Below, in pieces: positions 14,898-20,010 of a stretch of DNA of 64,000 bases. The DNA is from Pseudomonadota bacterium. GTDB lineage: Bacteria; Pseudomonadota; Gammaproteobacteria; Steroidobacterales; Steroidobacteraceae. The notes below the pieces were generated by a model, which was given only the letters and a program-made list of their open reading frames with translations, searched no databases and had not been told where the DNA came from. The DNA lies in NCBI GenBank assembly GCA_021816775.1, contig JAKAXA010000008.1, forward strand, positions 62,001-126,000, read 5' to 3'. A program made the translations under genes and the position numbers. The stretch's first letter is position 1; each line of letters begins with the position of its first letter.

Positions 14898-16997
14898 GTG
14901 GCCCATCCAGCTCCGAGTGAGTCTCGCGAATCCGCCAGTGATGCCGCCCCCAGCGGCGCGCGGGCGGCGGTCGGCCTGACGGCACTCACCTGTCACGACG
15001 ATTTCCTGCTCGAGCTCGGCGAGGTCCTCGGCGGCCGCGCCAGCGTCCACCCGGCCGATTCGCTCGACGCCGCGCTCGATCAGGTCGGCGCCGGCCGGGG
15101 CGGACAGATCCTGGCGATCGATGCCCGCGGGATCGCGGACGTACGCGCCGACGTCGAGCGTGCCAGCAGGCAGGTCCCTCACGCCGTCATTCTGGTCTTC
15201 ACCGATGCCGGCGCGGAAAAGACCATTGCCGCGGCAGTGAAGGGAACGAAGGTCTTTGCGGTGCTGCCTCTGCCGATGGAGCCCGGCAAGACCTCCGCAG
15301 TCCTCGAGGCCGCGTTGACGGATGCGCTTCGCCAGCACGCGCCATCGGGCTCGGCTTCCGCCCGCACGTCCCGCGAAGACGCGCCGGCGCCCCGCCATTC
15401 GCCGCCCGCCGCACCCGAGCCGGCGGCTGCAGAGCCCCCGCCGAGCGGCGCCGGCAAACGCCTTTGGCTCGCCATCGGGGCCGGCGTGCTCGCCCTCGGG
15501 GTCGGCGCCGGCATATACCTGATGCGCCAGCCGCCCCACGCCGCGCCGCCGCTCACGGCGACACCGCAGTCCCCCGCCGCGCACGCGCAAGGCGCGCCGC
15601 AGGGACGGCTCGCGCCCCACCTGCCCGCGCCGGCGGTGGATACGTCCATCGTGCGAGGGCACGTCGAGGACCTGCTCGAGAAAGCCAGCCGCGCGATGTT
15701 TGAGCGGCGCTTCACCGCGCCGAGGGGCGCCAATGCGCTCGTCTACTACCGTTCCGTGCTGGCGGTCGATCCGACCAACGGCGAGGCCCTCGACGGCCTG
15801 CGGCGGGTCGGTCACGTGTTGATCTCGCGATTCAACGACGACATCGCCCAGCAGCATTACAACCGCGCCTCGCTCGCGCTCGCCACGCTGCGCCTCGCCG
15901 AGCCGACCAACGCGCACGTGCGCCCGTTCGGCATCGAACTGTCCGAGGCCCTCGTCAATCAGGCCCTGGCGAACGGGCCGCTCGGCACGGTGCCGGCGCT
16001 CATCGCCCAGGCGGCGCGCCGCGGCGTGCCGGCCGCGCAGCTGGCGACTTGGCAGAGCGCGCTCACGGGCCAGCAGCACAAGCGGCAGATCCAGAAGATC
16101 GCCGGGCAGATTGCCCGACGCATCGATGCCAATCGGCTGACCGGCCCCGCCAGCGCGCAAACCGCGCTCGCGCGGCTGCGCACGCTCGCGCCGACCGCGC
16201 CCGCCACGCAAAACGCCGCACAGGCGCTGACCCGCGCGTTGCTGCGTCAGGCGCGCGAGGCAGGCATGGCCGGCCGCAGCGCAGCGGAGAACGAGTGGCT
16301 CGCCGCCGCCCGCGAAAACGGCGCGACCGCCGAGGCGCTCGCCGCCCTGCGTACACAGGTCGCCGCGGCGCGCACGAGCGCCGCGAACTCCAGGCTCGAG
16401 CAGCTGCTCGCCGCGGCCCGCGCCCGTCTCGACGCCGGGCGGCTGCTGCAGCCGGCAAATGACAGCGCCGCGTACTACCTGAGCACCGTCGACGCGAACC
16501 ACCCCGACGCGGGGGAAGCGGCCGCGGCGCGCCGATTGCGCAGCGCGCTGGCCGCAGCGCTCGTGGCGCGCGCCGAGTCGGCGTCCCGCGCCGGACAGCA
16601 TGCCGCAGCGCTGGCGGACCTGGCCGCCGCGCGCCGCTGGGGCGCGAGCGCCGCTTCACTGCACACCGCGGCAGCGCTCGCCGCCAAGCCGCTGCCGCCC
16701 ACGCCGGCACAGCTATCCGAGGTGGCCGAGAATCTGCGCCGCACCCACTACGTTGCGCCGGTCTACCCGCAACGGGCGCTCGATGAGCGCATTGCCGGTC
16801 AGGTGACGGTGCAGTACATCGTCGACAAGAGCGGCCACACGCGCAGCCTGCAGGTGATCGCGGCCGCTCCGGCGGGCGTGTTCAACCGCGCCGCGCTCGA
16901 TGCCATCCGCCGCTGGCGCTATGCGCCGCCGAGATTCCACGGCGAACCGGTGGCAGTGCCGGTCCGCACCATGATCCGCTTCGTACTGCCGAACTGA
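14898..16997 (+). CDS. TonB-family energy transducer with N-terminal receiver-like domain
   Basis: A 699-residue protein starting at GTG, 7 bases after AGGGAG. Residues about 25-145 resemble a degenerate two-component receiver: an acidic CHDD (32-35), a central LAIDARG (Asp75) and a VILVFTDAG strand, but LPLPM stands where receivers have Lys-Pro. A Pro/Ala-rich linker leads to one membrane segment (about 189-209). Then comes a long, Ala-rich helical region with repeat-like units of TPR character (about 235-600). The C-terminal 90 residues form a TonB domain: HYVAPVYPQRALDERIAGQV, TVQYIVDKSGHT, FNRAALDAIRRWRYAPPRF. This predicts the receiver-like head in the cytoplasm and the TonB end in the periplasm. 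The gene is 13 bases upstream of a CheA-like kinase, so a signalling link is inferred. Confidence 0.85.
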   Translation: MAHPAPSESRESASDAAPSGARAAVGLTALTCHDDFLLELGEVLGGRASVHPADSLDAALDQVGAGRGGQILAIDARGIADVRADVERASRQVPHAVILVFTDAGAEKTIAAAVKGTKVFAVLPLPMEPGKTSAVLEAALTDALRQHAPSGSASARTSREDAPAPRHSPPAAPEPAAAEPPPSGAGKRLWLAIGAGVLALGVGAGIYLMRQPPHAAPPLTATPQSPAAHAQGAPQGRLAPHLPAPAVDTSIVRGHVEDLLEKASRAMFERRFTAPRGANALVYYRSVLAVDPTNGEALDGLRRVGHVLISRFNDDIAQQHYNRASLALATLRLAEPTNAHVRPFGIELSEALVNQALANGPLGTVPALIAQAARRGVPAAQLATWQSALTGQQHKRQIQKIAGQIARRIDANRLTGPASAQTALARLRTLAPTAPATQNAAQALTRALLRQAREAGMAGRSAAENEWLAAARENGATAEALAALRTQVAAARTSAANSRLEQLLAAARARLDAGRLLQPANDSAAYYLSTVDANHPDAGEAAAARRLRSALAAALVARAESASRAGQHAAALADLAAARRWGASAASLHTAAALAAKPLPPTPAQLSEVAENLRRTHYVAPVYPQRALDERIAGQVTVQYIVDKSGHTRSLQVIAAAPAGVFNRAALDAIRRWRYAPPRFHGEPVAVPVRTMIRFVLPN

Positions 16998-17010
16998 CCG
17001 GGAACCACGC

Positions 17011-19119
17011 ATGCGACTGTCAGGCACTGATCGAAGCCGCCGGCTGCTCACCGCGGGCGCCGGCATCGTGTTCGCCGCGGTGATGAGTCTGGTGCTGATC
17101 ATCGGCTTCAGGCTCGCCACGGAAATCCGCGCCAGCGTCGGCGCCTTGCAGCGGGCGAGCGAGCTGGAGACCTATCCGTCGGTGGTCTCCGAGCAGCTCA
17201 CGGCGCTGCGCGAGCGGCTCGATACGCTCGAGTACACCGGCCACGTGCACGCCGAGCTCGCCGGCAGCATACGGGGCTTCAACCGGGACCTCGCCGCGCT
17301 CGAGCGTCAGCCCGGCCTCGATCCCGCGGCGATGCACGCCGCCGCCGCACTGTGGCGCAGCTACGCCGGCGTGCTCACGCCCGTGCTCGCCTATGACGGG
17401 GAGCCGTATTCCGATACCGCCACCACCAGCTCGCTCTCGCGCAGCGGGCGGGTGTTCTATGCGCACGTGCGGCGCGCCGAACTGTTCGCCCAGACCCACG
17501 CCGCGGCGTTGCACCGGCAGCTGGCCACGGTCAGCGCCTCCCTGCAGGCGGGCACCGCCGCGGCGGCGGCGCGGCTGCGCCTGCTGCTCTCCGGCGGCGT
17601 GCTCGCGGTGCTGCTGCTCGGGCTCGCGGCCGCCTACCTGCAGCTGGCGCGCTCCCGCGGGGAGCGGGCGGCGCGCGAGGCCCAGGAACAGACACGCGAC
17701 ATCCTGGCCACGGTGCGCGAGGGCTTCTTTCTGCTCGATGCCGACTACCGCATCGGCGCGGTGTGGTCCCAGGCGCTGACCCACATGTTCGCCCGCCAGG
17801 ACTTCGCCGGCCTGTCGTTCGAGGAGCTGCTGCGCGACAAGGTGCCGCCCGAGACCCTCGCCACCGCCACGAAGTTCATCAAGCTGCTGTGGGGCGAGCG
17901 CGCACACGAGAACCTCATGAAGAGCATCAACCCGCTGGGCCAGCTCGAAGTGAGCATGGACAACGGCCGCGGCGGCAAGGAAACCCGCTACCTGCAGTTC
18001 GATTTCCACCGCGTGATGGGCCCGAAGGGCATCAAGCACGTGCTGTGCGCGGTCGGTGACATCACCTCGAGCGTGCTGCTCTCGCGTGAGCTGCACGAGG
18101 CCCAGGAGAACGCCCACTCCCAGCTCGACATGATGGTCGGCATGCTGCATTCCGACCCGCTGCAGATCGGGGCCTTCCTCGACAGCGCCTCGGCGGGTCT
18201 GAAGCACATCAACGCGATCCTGAAGGAGCCTGCGCGCAACCACGCGGAGTTCAGCAAGAAGCTCGCCGGCCTCGCGCGCGAGCTGCACTCGCTGAAGGGC
18301 GAGGCCTCGGCGCTGAACCTGATGAGCATCGCCCAGCGCGTCCATCACCTCGAGGACATGGTGGCGGAGCTGAAAGGCCGCAGCGAGCTCACCGGCAACG
18401 ACTTCCTGCCGCTGGTGCTGAAGCTCGATGAGCTGCTCGCCCATCTGCGCGGCGTGCGCGAGATGACGCTGCGCCTCTCGAGCCTGAAGGGAGGCACGCC
18501 CGCCCCGGAGGGCACCTTGAGCACGCCGATTCTGCGCCTCGGCGCGAACGGCCCGGAGGAGCTCGCCTCGACGCTGCACTCCCTCGCGCGCAAGCTGGCG
18601 CAGGATCACGGCAAGGACTTCATGCTCACGCTGAACGGGCTCGCGGACTGCCCGCGGGCGTACCTGCCGACCGTCAAGGACTGCCTCATCCAGATGCTGC
18701 GCAACGCCGCCGTGCACGGTATCGAGCCGGACGCGGTGCGCCGCGCCGGCGCAAAATCAGGCACCGGCCAGGTGCGGGTGGATTTCCGCCGGGTGGAGTC
18801 CGGCTACGAGATGCTGTTCGAGGACGACGGCGCGGGGCTCTTGCCCGAGGCGCTGAAGGAGGCGGCCGTGCGCAGGAACATCCTGACCCCGCAGCAGGCG
18901 GCGCAGCTCGACAACCGCGCGACGCTGGCGCTGATCTTCAAGCCCGGATTCTCCACGCGCACCGAGGTGTCGATGGATGCCGGACGCGGCGCGGGCATGG
19001 ACGTGGTGGCCAAGGCGGTCTACGGCCTCGGCGGCAAGATCGGCGTCAGCACCAACCCCGGCCGCTACACGCGCTTCAAGATCGCACTGCCCGCGGCCAG
19101 CGAGACCGCGGTCGCGTAG
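17011..19119 (+). CDS. Membrane CheA-like histidine kinase (PAS, HPt, ATPase; no CheW domain)
   Basis: A 702-residue protein. Two membrane helices (about 12-34 and 191-211) flank a periplasmic, mostly helical sensor region. A PAS-like domain follows (about 228-350: ILATVREGFFLLDADYRIG). Then comes an HPt-type helix with LHSLKGEASALNL, where His426 is the likely phosphorylation site. The ATPase is CheA-type: CLIQMLRNAAVHGIE (Asn565), EDDGAGL (605-610), FKPGFSTR and GRGAGMDVVAKAVYGLGG (658-675). The protein ends right after the ATPase, so the CheW-like P5 domain of true CheA is absent and coupling to chemoreceptor arrays is unlikely. It is probably a self-contained sensor for the CheY and CheX genes downstream, 21 and 444 bases away. 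Confidence 0.88.
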   Translation: MRLSGTDRSRRLLTAGAGIVFAAVMSLVLIIGFRLATEIRASVGALQRASELETYPSVVSEQLTALRERLDTLEYTGHVHAELAGSIRGFNRDLAALERQPGLDPAAMHAAAALWRSYAGVLTPVLAYDGEPYSDTATTSSLSRSGRVFYAHVRRAELFAQTHAAALHRQLATVSASLQAGTAAAAARLRLLLSGGVLAVLLLGLAAAYLQLARSRGERAAREAQEQTRDILATVREGFFLLDADYRIGAVWSQALTHMFARQDFAGLSFEELLRDKVPPETLATATKFIKLLWGERAHENLMKSINPLGQLEVSMDNGRGGKETRYLQFDFHRVMGPKGIKHVLCAVGDITSSVLLSRELHEAQENAHSQLDMMVGMLHSDPLQIGAFLDSASAGLKHINAILKEPARNHAEFSKKLAGLARELHSLKGEASALNLMSIAQRVHHLEDMVAELKGRSELTGNDFLPLVLKLDELLAHLRGVREMTLRLSSLKGGTPAPEGTLSTPILRLGANGPEELASTLHSLARKLAQDHGKDFMLTLNGLADCPRAYLPTVKDCLIQMLRNAAVHGIEPDAVRRAGAKSGTGQVRVDFRRVESGYEMLFEDDGAGLLPEALKEAAVRRNILTPQQAAQLDNRATLALIFKPGFSTRTEVSMDAGRGAGMDVVAKAVYGLGGKIGVSTNPGRYTRFKIALPAASETAVA

Positions 19120-19140
19120 GCGCGCCGAGGACAACGGCTC

Positions 19141-19533
19141 ATGGGCACGGCACAGGAGGCTGTTGCACGGCGGACCATCAGACTGCTGATCGTCGACGAC
19201 TCGAACATCGTGCGACGGCGCATCGAGCGCTCGCAGCAGTTCGATGAGCTCGAGGTGGTCGGCACCGCCGCCAACGGCCTGGAGGCGCTGGAGCTGGCGC
19301 GCAGGACCGACCCGGACCTGGTCACCATGGATCTGACCATGCCGCAGATGGACGGCATCGAGTGCATCACGCAGCTGGTCCGGTTCAAGCCCGCGATCCG
19401 GATCCTGGTCATCTCCGCGCTCGCCGACAAGGCCACCGCGGTGGAGGCCATGGAGCGCGGCGCGAACGGCTTCCTCAACAAGCCGTTCACCGACCGGCAG
19501 CTGAACGACGCGATCGCCGAGCTGATGTACTGA
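19141..19533 (+). CDS. Single-domain CheY-like response regulator
   Basis: A 130-residue receiver with no output domain. All key residues are present: Asp19 and Asp20 in LLIVDDSN, phospho-acceptor Asp64 in VTMDLTMPQMDG, Ser92 in VISAL and Lys114 in FLNKPF. It should take phosphate from the upstream CheA-like kinase and pass the signal through a protein contact. The flagellar motor is possible, but no flagellar or chemoreceptor gene is near; the receiver-like TonB protein of the same operon or another partner is equally possible. The next gene encodes a CheX-type phosphatase, which would reset it. Confidence 0.93.
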   Translation: MGTAQEAVARRTIRLLIVDDSNIVRRRIERSQQFDELEVVGTAANGLEALELARRTDPDLVTMDLTMPQMDGIECITQLVRFKPAIRILVISALADKATAVEAMERGANGFLNKPFTDRQLNDAIAELMY

Positions 19534-19563
19534 TCCGGCAGGCACGGCACCGAGAGCACGCAC

Positions 19564-20010
19564 ATGTTGCGCGAAGAGGAACTGAAAACTTTCGTCGACG
19601 GCACCACCCGTTACTTCGAGGTGGCCGCGCAGCAGCCGGCGACCATCGGCTCGCCCTACCTGCTCGAGGGCGAGCCGGCCATGCACGATTACACCGGCAT
19701 GATCAACATCTCCGGCAAACGCGAGGGGGTGGTTTACTTCACCGCGCCGCGCGCCATGCTGACGGTGCTGCTGATGAAGATGCAGGAGAGCGACTTCAGC
19801 CACGAGAGCATGCGCGATCTGGTCGGCGAGGTGGCCAACACCATCTCAGGCAACGCGCGGCGCGACTTCGGACATGATTTCGTGATTTCCGTGCCGAGCG
19901 TGTTCGCCGGCGAGAAACCGCAGCTCGCGCAGCCCTCCGGCGCGCGCGCCTTCGTCATTCCCATCCACTGGCGCAGCCACTCGGCGAAACTGGTCGTGTC
20001 GCTGACCTGA
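19564..20010 (+). CDS. CheX-type CheY-P phosphatase
   Basis: A 148-residue protein of the CheC/CheX/FliY phosphatase superfamily. The catalytic helix has the CheX-form motif DLVGEVANTISGNAR, with Glu89 and Asn92 as the expected active pair. The TGMINISGKREGVVYFT and FVIPIHWRSHSAKLVVSL strands match CheX-like alpha/beta folds. Only one catalytic motif is present, as in CheX and unlike CheC, which has two. It directly follows the single-domain receiver on the same strand, so dephosphorylation of that receiver is the natural inference. This is the last gene of the operon before a convergent junction. Confidence 0.88.
   Translation: MLREEELKTFVDGTTRYFEVAAQQPATIGSPYLLEGEPAMHDYTGMINISGKREGVVYFTAPRAMLTVLLMKMQESDFSHESMRDLVGEVANTISGNARRDFGHDFVISVPSVFAGEKPQLAQPSGARAFVIPIHWRSHSAKLVVSLT

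What the first reader, a model, noticed from the sequence alone, without database searches (positions are those of the whole stretch)
14898..20010. Four-gene signalling group joining a CheA-like kinase, CheY and CheX phosphatase to a TonB protein
Seen: four closely spaced plus-strand genes (gaps 13, 21 and 30 bases) encode a TonB-domain protein with a receiver-like head, a two-helix membrane CheA-like kinase, a lone receiver and a CheX-type phosphatase. Known: CheA, CheY and CheX form phosphorelays in chemotaxis, while TonB powers outer-membrane receptors. Inference: this could be a sensor system in which phosphorylation changes the activity or placement of a TonB-type transducer. No chemoreceptor, CheW, CheR/B or flagellar gene is nearby, so it is not a normal chemotaxis set. 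I know of no described system of exactly this form, but I could not search for one.
Basis: partly seen in the sequence, partly recalled or inferred. Interest (0 to 1): 0.75.

Follow-up and report, generated by a model that had tools for sequence, protein, structure and literature searches.

The report
Sensor phosphorelay paired with envelope-spanning TonB protein
Bacteria of one family keep a membrane sensor kinase, its messenger protein and its off-switch beside a protein that appears to run from the cell interior through the inner membrane towards the outer membrane, which suggests an undescribed way of signalling to the cell envelope; no function has been tested.

Summary
The four genes are real at the stated coordinates and gaps, and the group is not unique to this genome. 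Kinase-CheY-CheX is a standalone module found patchily in Gammaproteobacteria (12 of 369 class genomes, own included, have the kinase). In the window's family (probably Steroidobacteraceae) it sits beside the TonB-domain protein in 57 of 57 testable near-group loci and in 27 of 27 triad loci from 14 further genera, in two gene orders (the sets overlap). In 25 loci outside it, 0 have the TonB protein in the fetched flanks. The TonB-protein tree needs at least three changes of linkage.

The kinase is not a CheA: Hpt and CheA-type ATPase, but no CheW and no detectable P3. The TonB protein has a degenerate receiver head, one membrane helix, helical repeats and TonB_C. It lacks TonB's SxxxH motif (0 of 35), so it is probably not a receptor energiser. 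FliM is absent from 8 of 27 triad genomes, so CheY cannot act only on flagella.

Best reading, inferred: CheY~P acts through the receiver-like head. Eight paper searches aimed at it showed no description in their listings.

The parts
14898..16997 (+). Gene A: TonB_C-domain protein, 699 aa (receiver-like head - membrane helix - helical repeats - TonB_C)
14967..15338 (+). Degenerate receiver head (residues 24-147); Asp75 invariant in 35 of 35, Asp34 in 32 of 35; Thr at 102 in 10 of 35; the KP lysine is lost in this clade
   Evidence: AF2 model; VIA-align; column counts; head alignment
15459..15524 (+). Single predicted membrane helix (residues 188-209), no SxxxH motif
15663..16697 (+). Helical (TPR-like) repeats, residues 256-600, presumed periplasmic
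   Evidence: weak matches to solved TPR proteins
16755..16988 (+). TonB_C domain (residues 620-697)
   Evidence: Pfam PF03544; Foldseek to TonB C-terminal domains
17011..19119 (+). Gene B: membrane sensor kinase, 702 aa: four-helix sensor region, PAS-like domain, Hpt, CheA-type ATPase; no CheW, no detectable P3
18172..18447 (+). Hpt domain; His426 at 18286-18288 is invariant in 34 of 34 aligned kinases
18553..19107 (+). CheA-type HATPase (P4), residues 515-699
19141..19533 (+). Gene C: stand-alone CheY-type receiver, 130 aa; Asp64 at 19330-19332, Asp19/20 and Lys114 invariant in 6 of 6 aligned
19564..20010 (+). Gene D: CheX-type phosphatase, 148 aa; Glu89 and Asn92 (19828-19839) invariant in 7 of 7 aligned; the only CheX match in this genome

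Best explanation
A self-contained sensor phosphorelay that signals to a trans-envelope protein. The membrane kinase senses a periplasmic cue through its four-helix region and phosphorylates its own Hpt His426 with a CheA-type ATPase. It passes the phosphoryl group to the lone CheY, and CheX removes it. CheY~P binds the cytoplasmic receiver-like head of the TonB_C protein (receiver to degenerate-receiver pairing) and changes the state or position of a rod whose TPR-like repeats and TonB_C domain reach across the periplasm to peptidoglycan or an outer-membrane partner. Shown here: the genes, domains, predicted folds, motif states, conserved linkage in two gene orders, and absence of the linkage in the loci sampled outside the family. 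Inferred: the sensed cue, the phosphotransfer path, the CheY-head contact and what the rod does.
For: Linkage: 57 of 57 near-group loci with at least 1.2 kb upstream carry the TonB protein beside the triad (56 upstream, 1 downstream), and CheY and CheX follow in 59 of 59 with at least 1.1 kb downstream (near group = 70 loci). 27 of 27 triad loci from 14 other genera have it, 17 upstream and 10 downstream (partly the same genomes). In 9 of 19 near-group loci checked, PrkA is not in the flank while the block stays. The TonB tree (53 selected proteins) needs 4 changes of linkage state, at least 3 forced by well supported branches. Signalling parts recur on or beside this TonB family: receiver fold; a separate complete receiver gene beside a head-less TonB gene in L183-L185, with a histidine kinase in front (Pfam run on L184); a Ser/Thr-kinase domain fused to TonB_C in L186; a Ser/Thr kinase with a receiver-like front part between TonB gene and sensor kinase in L217, L224, L235, L236. 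Of family genomes tested, 10 of 10 kinase-positive ones have a TonB-family match and 8 of 20 kinase-negative ones (chosen from 84 positive and 66 negative). CheX and CheY keep their active-site residues.
Against: No interaction, phosphotransfer or phenotype data. The triad occurs without the TonB protein in the fetched flanks of 25 of 25 loci outside the near group (21 of 25 with both CheY and CheX; flanks short in L135, L138 and L149), so CheY must have other outputs there. The head has lost the Lys and mostly the Thr of a working receiver and could be a relic. Gene A is the least conserved of the four in the genus. The linked genomes share one family and much ancestry, and the changes in the tree may be gains or losses. 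Some kinase-negative family genomes (such as G838, G845) keep TonB members, and unlinked members sit beside a Ser/Thr kinase, so the TonB protein is not tied only to the triad. The AF2 model has pTM 0.52, so how its domains are arranged is unsure.
Confidence: 0.5

Rival explanations
1. The TonB protein is the input or scaffold, not the output: it reports outer-membrane or peptidoglycan status and its receiver-like head holds or gates the kinase's Hpt domain or CheY, while CheY~P acts on another target.
For: The gene is usually first in the group (17 of 27 loci; 56 of 57). The triad exists without it (25 of 25 outer loci), so CheY has other targets. A head without switch residues suits a binding role.
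Against: The kinase already has its own sensor region and PAS-like domain. In L183-L185 the receiver is complete and follows a histidine kinase gene, which is an output layout.
Confidence: 0.2
2. CheY acts on type IV pili, flagella or another distributed machine, and the TonB protein is only co-expressed or is controlled separately, for example by the Ser/Thr kinase found next to relatives.
For: One relative of the kinase has a PilJ-type sensor match just under the cut-off (L143, 26.2 bits, cut-off 26.6). All 27 triad genomes searched have a PilT-family gene. A Ser/Thr kinase of this kind accompanies unlinked TonB members and exists in this genome.
Against: PilT-family genes are in 121 of 143 class genomes, so 27 of 27 says little. 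FliM is absent from 8 of 27. Repeated changes that bring the two together are unexpected for a bystander.
Confidence: 0.2
3. One reading: an ordinary TonB-type transducer for outer-membrane receptors whose activity or placement is set by phosphorylation.
For: A true TonB_C domain.
Against: SxxxH motif in 0 of 35 membrane segments; structured repeats instead of an extended linker. ExbB/ExbD was not among the neighbours identified and was not searched genome-wide.
Confidence: 0.1

Closest known systems
GltG (PglI) of the Myxococcus xanthus gliding machinery
   Same: Cytosolic domain of a signalling kind, one membrane protein with a periplasmic part and C-terminal TonB_C (PMC3169522 Table 1 and passages)
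   Different: The cytosolic domain is FHA, not a receiver; GltG binds the AglR motor protein; Glt and Agl genes were not searched for here; no homology test was made
CheA-CheY-CheX chemotaxis phosphorelay
   Same: CheA-type P4 ATPase, Hpt, lone CheY, CheX with conserved active-site residues
   Different: Kinase is itself a membrane sensor, without CheW and without detectable P3; no receptor, CheW, CheR or CheB among the neighbours identified
TonB of the TonB-ExbB-ExbD energy-transducing complex
   Same: C-terminal domain
   Different: Receiver head, helical repeats, no SxxxH motif
SjdR of Anabaena (TonB-named protein not serving transport)
   Same: An envelope protein with a cytosolic part and a cell-wall role (PMC8262864, passages seen)
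   Different: Short, said there to have no TonB-like periplasmic domain, not tied to a phosphorelay

Membership tests
CheA histidine kinase | CheA-type HATPase_c (P4) | tested here: met
   NCBIfam CheA_Halo is the best match (132 bits, 523-696), though far below its whole-protein cut-off of 950; phmmer to CheA P4 E 2.8e-22; Foldseek TMt about 0.8-0.88 to CheA P4 chains
CheA histidine kinase | Hpt domain with phospho-accepting His | tested here: met
   PF01627 30.8 bits; His426 invariant in 34 of 34
CheA histidine kinase | CheW (P5) domain, said to be in every CheA (PMC10782961, passages) | tested here: not met
   No CheW hit at E<=1; the protein ends with the ATPase
CheA histidine kinase | P3 dimerisation domain | tested here: not met
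   No H-kinase_dim hit at E<=1; only a low-confidence stretch (495-512) lies between the Hpt helices and the ATPase in the model. PMC10782961 warns that HMMER often misses P3
CheX phosphatase | CheX sequence family | tested here: met
   PF13690 71.9 bits, cut-off 27; phmmer to solved CheX E 2.5e-9. NCBIfam's Thermotogales CheX equivalog is not reached (24.3 bits, cut-off 280)
CheX phosphatase | Catalytic Glu-x-x-Asn (role recalled, not from a call) | tested here: met
   E89/N92 invariant in 7 of 7
CheX phosphatase | CheY~P dephosphorylation | not testable with these tools
   Needs purified proteins
TonB energy transducer | TonB_C domain | tested here: met
   PF03544 67.9 bits; Foldseek to TonB C-terminal domains
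TonB energy transducer | SxxxH motif in the membrane helix (recalled) | tested here: not met
   0 of 35 membrane segments
TonB energy transducer | Partnership with ExbB/ExbD | not tested
   Not among the neighbours identified; not searched genome-wide
Receiver domain (gene A head) | Receiver fold | tested here: met
Receiver domain (gene A head) | Asp, Thr/Ser and Lys of a working receiver (recalled) | tested here: not met
   Asp75 35 of 35, but Thr at 102 in 10 of 35 and the KP lysine lost in this clade
GltG-type gliding protein | FHA head | tested here: not met
   Head is a receiver fold; no FHA hit at E<=1

The most novel reading that the evidence does not exclude
A new class of envelope signalling in which chemotaxis-type phosphorelays (and in relatives Ser/Thr kinases or classical histidine kinases) directly control a family of trans-envelope TonB_C rods through interchangeable cytoplasmic heads (degenerate receiver, separate receiver, Ser/Thr kinase), to operate an outer-membrane or cell-wall machine independent of flagella and of TonB-dependent uptake.
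Probability: 0.35. Interest if true: 0.82.

Novelty: new variant of a known kind. Interest (0 to 1): 0.62.

Why it matters
If right, phosphorelays can act mechanically across the envelope rather than only on genes, flagella or pili, and a TonB_C protein family seen in many families of this order would gain a signalling role. The kinase also shows a CheA-type ATPase in a self-sensing membrane kinase without CheW, which bears on how chemosensory kinases arose or were reduced.

Tried and rejected
Rejected: a canonical chemotaxis set (no CheW domain; no such neighbours among those identified; FliM missing from 8 of 27 triad genomes; three of the eight, G202, G314 and G410, are one genus, and all are drafts in many contigs). 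Rejected as uninformative: PilT in 27 of 27 triad genomes, because the class baseline is 121 of 143. Led nowhere: promoter/terminator scan (one promoter-like site on the minus strand, terminator-like sites near the chance number). A kinase search at phylum level matched 2 of 398 genomes, the own genome and G145, which were both known; the listing shows too few genomes to say how many other classes were sampled. Paper searches aimed at this system: 0 papers; 60, 20 listed; 3; 20, 19 listed; 77, 15 listed; 9; 118, 10 listed; 33, 12 listed; no listed title or abstract start describes it. Searches were aimed at Glt proteins. Subscription papers and preprints are not covered. VIA-align covered mainly residues 22-155 of gene A; I make no claim about fold novelty of the repeats. 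The tree used a selection (22 upstream-linked with the window, 9 downstream-linked, 22 unlinked). Gene calls in fetched loci are my own ORF heuristics plus profile matches.

Full report
WHAT IS THERE. Pfam finds TonB_C in gene A, Hpt and HATPase_c in gene B, Response_reg in gene C and CheX in gene D. The genome is a 3.94 Mb draft in 90 contigs. Its family is probably Steroidobacteraceae: contigs of its relatives reappear, by length, among named records titled Steroidobacteraceae (for example G031:C35 and L087); this is my inference. The flanks are PrkA and DUF444 on one side and KdpE and KdpD on the other (Pfam), all on the opposite strand; SpoVR, an EF-G-like protein and KdpC/B/A are named by eye.

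THE KINASE. The best sequence and structure matches of its C-terminal part are CheA P4 domains. The predicted model has a long four-helix region with the membrane segments, a PAS-like domain, an Hpt bundle and a P4 domain, with only a low-confidence linker where P3 would lie. No CheW and no H-kinase_dim were found at E<=1. A genomic survey states that CheW, P3, P4 and Hpt are core to CheA proteins (PMC10782961; I saw passages). So the kinase may work like CheA at the chemistry level but is not a CheA by that definition. One relative has a PilJ-type match just under the cut-off (L143).

THE CHEY AND CHEX. Site residues of CheY and the Glu-x-x-Asn of CheX are invariant in small alignments (6 and 7 sequences; the meaning of these residues is recalled). 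The CheX is the only match to PF13690 in this genome.

THE TONB PROTEIN. The AF2 model from 35 sequences (mean pLDDT 86.9, pTM 0.52) gives a receiver fold at 24-147, a membrane helix at 188-209, helical repeats at about 256-600 and TonB_C at the end. The best Foldseek hits are TonB C-terminal domains and receivers; VIA-align gives Z 14.5-16.1 for the head against receivers in the 50 rows shown. Asp75 is invariant (35 of 35) and Asp34 nearly so (32 of 35), but Thr at 102 is in 10 of 35, and the KP lysine, present in several relatives, is lost in this clade. The SxxxH motif (recalled) is in 0 of 35 membrane segments.

CONSERVATION OF THE GROUP. Of 36 other genomes of the genus searched, 32 have the kinase at E 1e-188 or better; G008, G009, G017 and G025 do not, all four being under 80% complete. 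Loci that reach far enough show the four genes together. Among loci ordered by kinase similarity, the near group (70 loci) has the TonB protein beside the triad in 57 of 57 loci with at least 1.2 kb upstream, 56 upstream and one (L142) downstream; CheY and CheX follow in 59 of 59 with at least 1.1 kb downstream. The 25 further loci have no TonB protein in the fetched flanks (0 of 25; flanks short in L135, L138 and L149), while 21 of 25 have both CheY and CheX, L139 has CheX only, L138 is cut off, and L155 and L156 have neither. PrkA is missing from the flank in 9 of 19 near-group loci checked. A family survey matched the kinase profile in 84 of 150 genomes and 17 of 25 genera at E<=1e-20, a count that includes some genomes with only a shorter, divergent kinase. 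I fetched 34 places: 27 triad loci from 14 genera other than the window's all have the TonB protein next to the triad, 17 upstream and 10 downstream, with CheX in 27 of 27 and CheY in 26 of 27; seven places with the divergent kinase have neither CheY, CheX nor TonB.

REPEATED CHANGES OF LINKAGE. A tree of 53 selected TonB-family proteins puts the 22 upstream-linked ones in one clade (98/98), the 9 downstream-linked ones in three places, and needs four changes between linked and unlinked, at least three forced by well supported branches. These may be gains or losses. Of family genomes tested, 10 of 10 kinase-positive ones and 8 of 20 kinase-negative ones have a TonB-family match at E<=1e-15 (one of the eight, G830, only a 75-residue frame); the 30 were picked from 84 positive and 66 negative.

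THE WIDER TONB FAMILY. Homologues, some without the head, occur in at least eight other families of the order. In L183, L184 and L185 a head-less TonB protein follows a protein with a complete receiver; in L184 Pfam identifies the gene before these as a histidine kinase, and a similar gene by eye precedes in L183 and L185. In five genomes of the genus a second TonB protein sits beside a Ser/Thr kinase with a receiver-like front part (L175-L179); in the four of these whose contig is long enough, GspA- and GspB-like genes are there too (Pfam run on L176; the rest by eye). In L186 a Ser/Thr-kinase domain is fused to a TonB_C protein. In four loci of three genera a Ser/Thr kinase of this kind lies between the TonB gene and the sensor kinase; Pfam gave a Response_reg hit for L143, L176, L178, L179 and L254, but not for L217, L224, L235, L236, L240 or L246, whose front part looks receiver-like only by eye. 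Six of the seven divergent kinases also lie by such a kinase. The window's own genome has one full-length match to this kinase, next to a GspB-like gene (by eye), with no TonB-family ORF among those called there. This makes a signalling role of the TonB family likely whatever the exact partner.

OUTPUT. FliM is absent from 8 of 27 triad genomes, three in the window's genus (G002, G016, G033; completeness 98, 92 and 94%) and five elsewhere (98-100%). CheY therefore cannot act only on FliM across this system; this genome itself has FliM. PilT does not discriminate.

MECHANISM AND COMPARISON. The most likely mechanism is a phosphorelay whose CheY acts through the receiver-like head of an envelope-spanning protein. 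The closest architecture that I could document is GltG of Myxococcus gliding: a bitopic membrane protein with a cytosolic FHA domain and a TonB_C match (PMC3169522; passages). It is an analogue in layout; no homology test was made. Nothing here shows phosphotransfer, binding or phenotype. I put the mechanism at 0.5 and the rivals at 0.2, 0.2 and 0.1; the mended counts did not change these odds.

NOVELTY. Eight paper searches aimed at this system (lists capped in several) gave no description of it in the listings. I call it a new variant of a known kind: a phosphorelay of chemotaxis type with an unusual envelope partner.

Noticed in passing
L175-L179 (sister genomes); L267:6639-8978 (window's own genome): A second TonB-family protein beside a Ser/Thr kinase with a receiver-like front part; GspA/GspB-like genes beside them in L175, L176, L178 and L179. 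In the window's genome a GspB-like gene (by eye) and the kinase are there but no second TonB ORF was called.
   Followed up: partly
L186:6590-9091: Natural fusion of a Ser/Thr-kinase domain with a TonB_C protein.
   Followed up: partly
L183, L184, L185: Three-gene set: membrane histidine kinase (Pfam shown for L184), receiver protein with a long unidentified C-terminal part, head-less TonB protein.
   Followed up: partly
L143, L144: Triads without a TonB gene: one is followed by a receiver-Ser/Thr kinase, the other lies convergent to a PP2C-Ser/Thr-kinase fusion.
   Followed up: partly
L148: Two kinase-CheY-CheX sets near each other with an extra CheX in one genome.
   Followed up: no
L240-L246: Shorter kinases related to gene B, without CheY, CheX or TonB; six of seven lie beside a Ser/Thr kinase.
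   Followed up: partly
L033, L130: A triad directly downstream of a gene that looks like rho (named by eye) in another family of the order.
   Followed up: no
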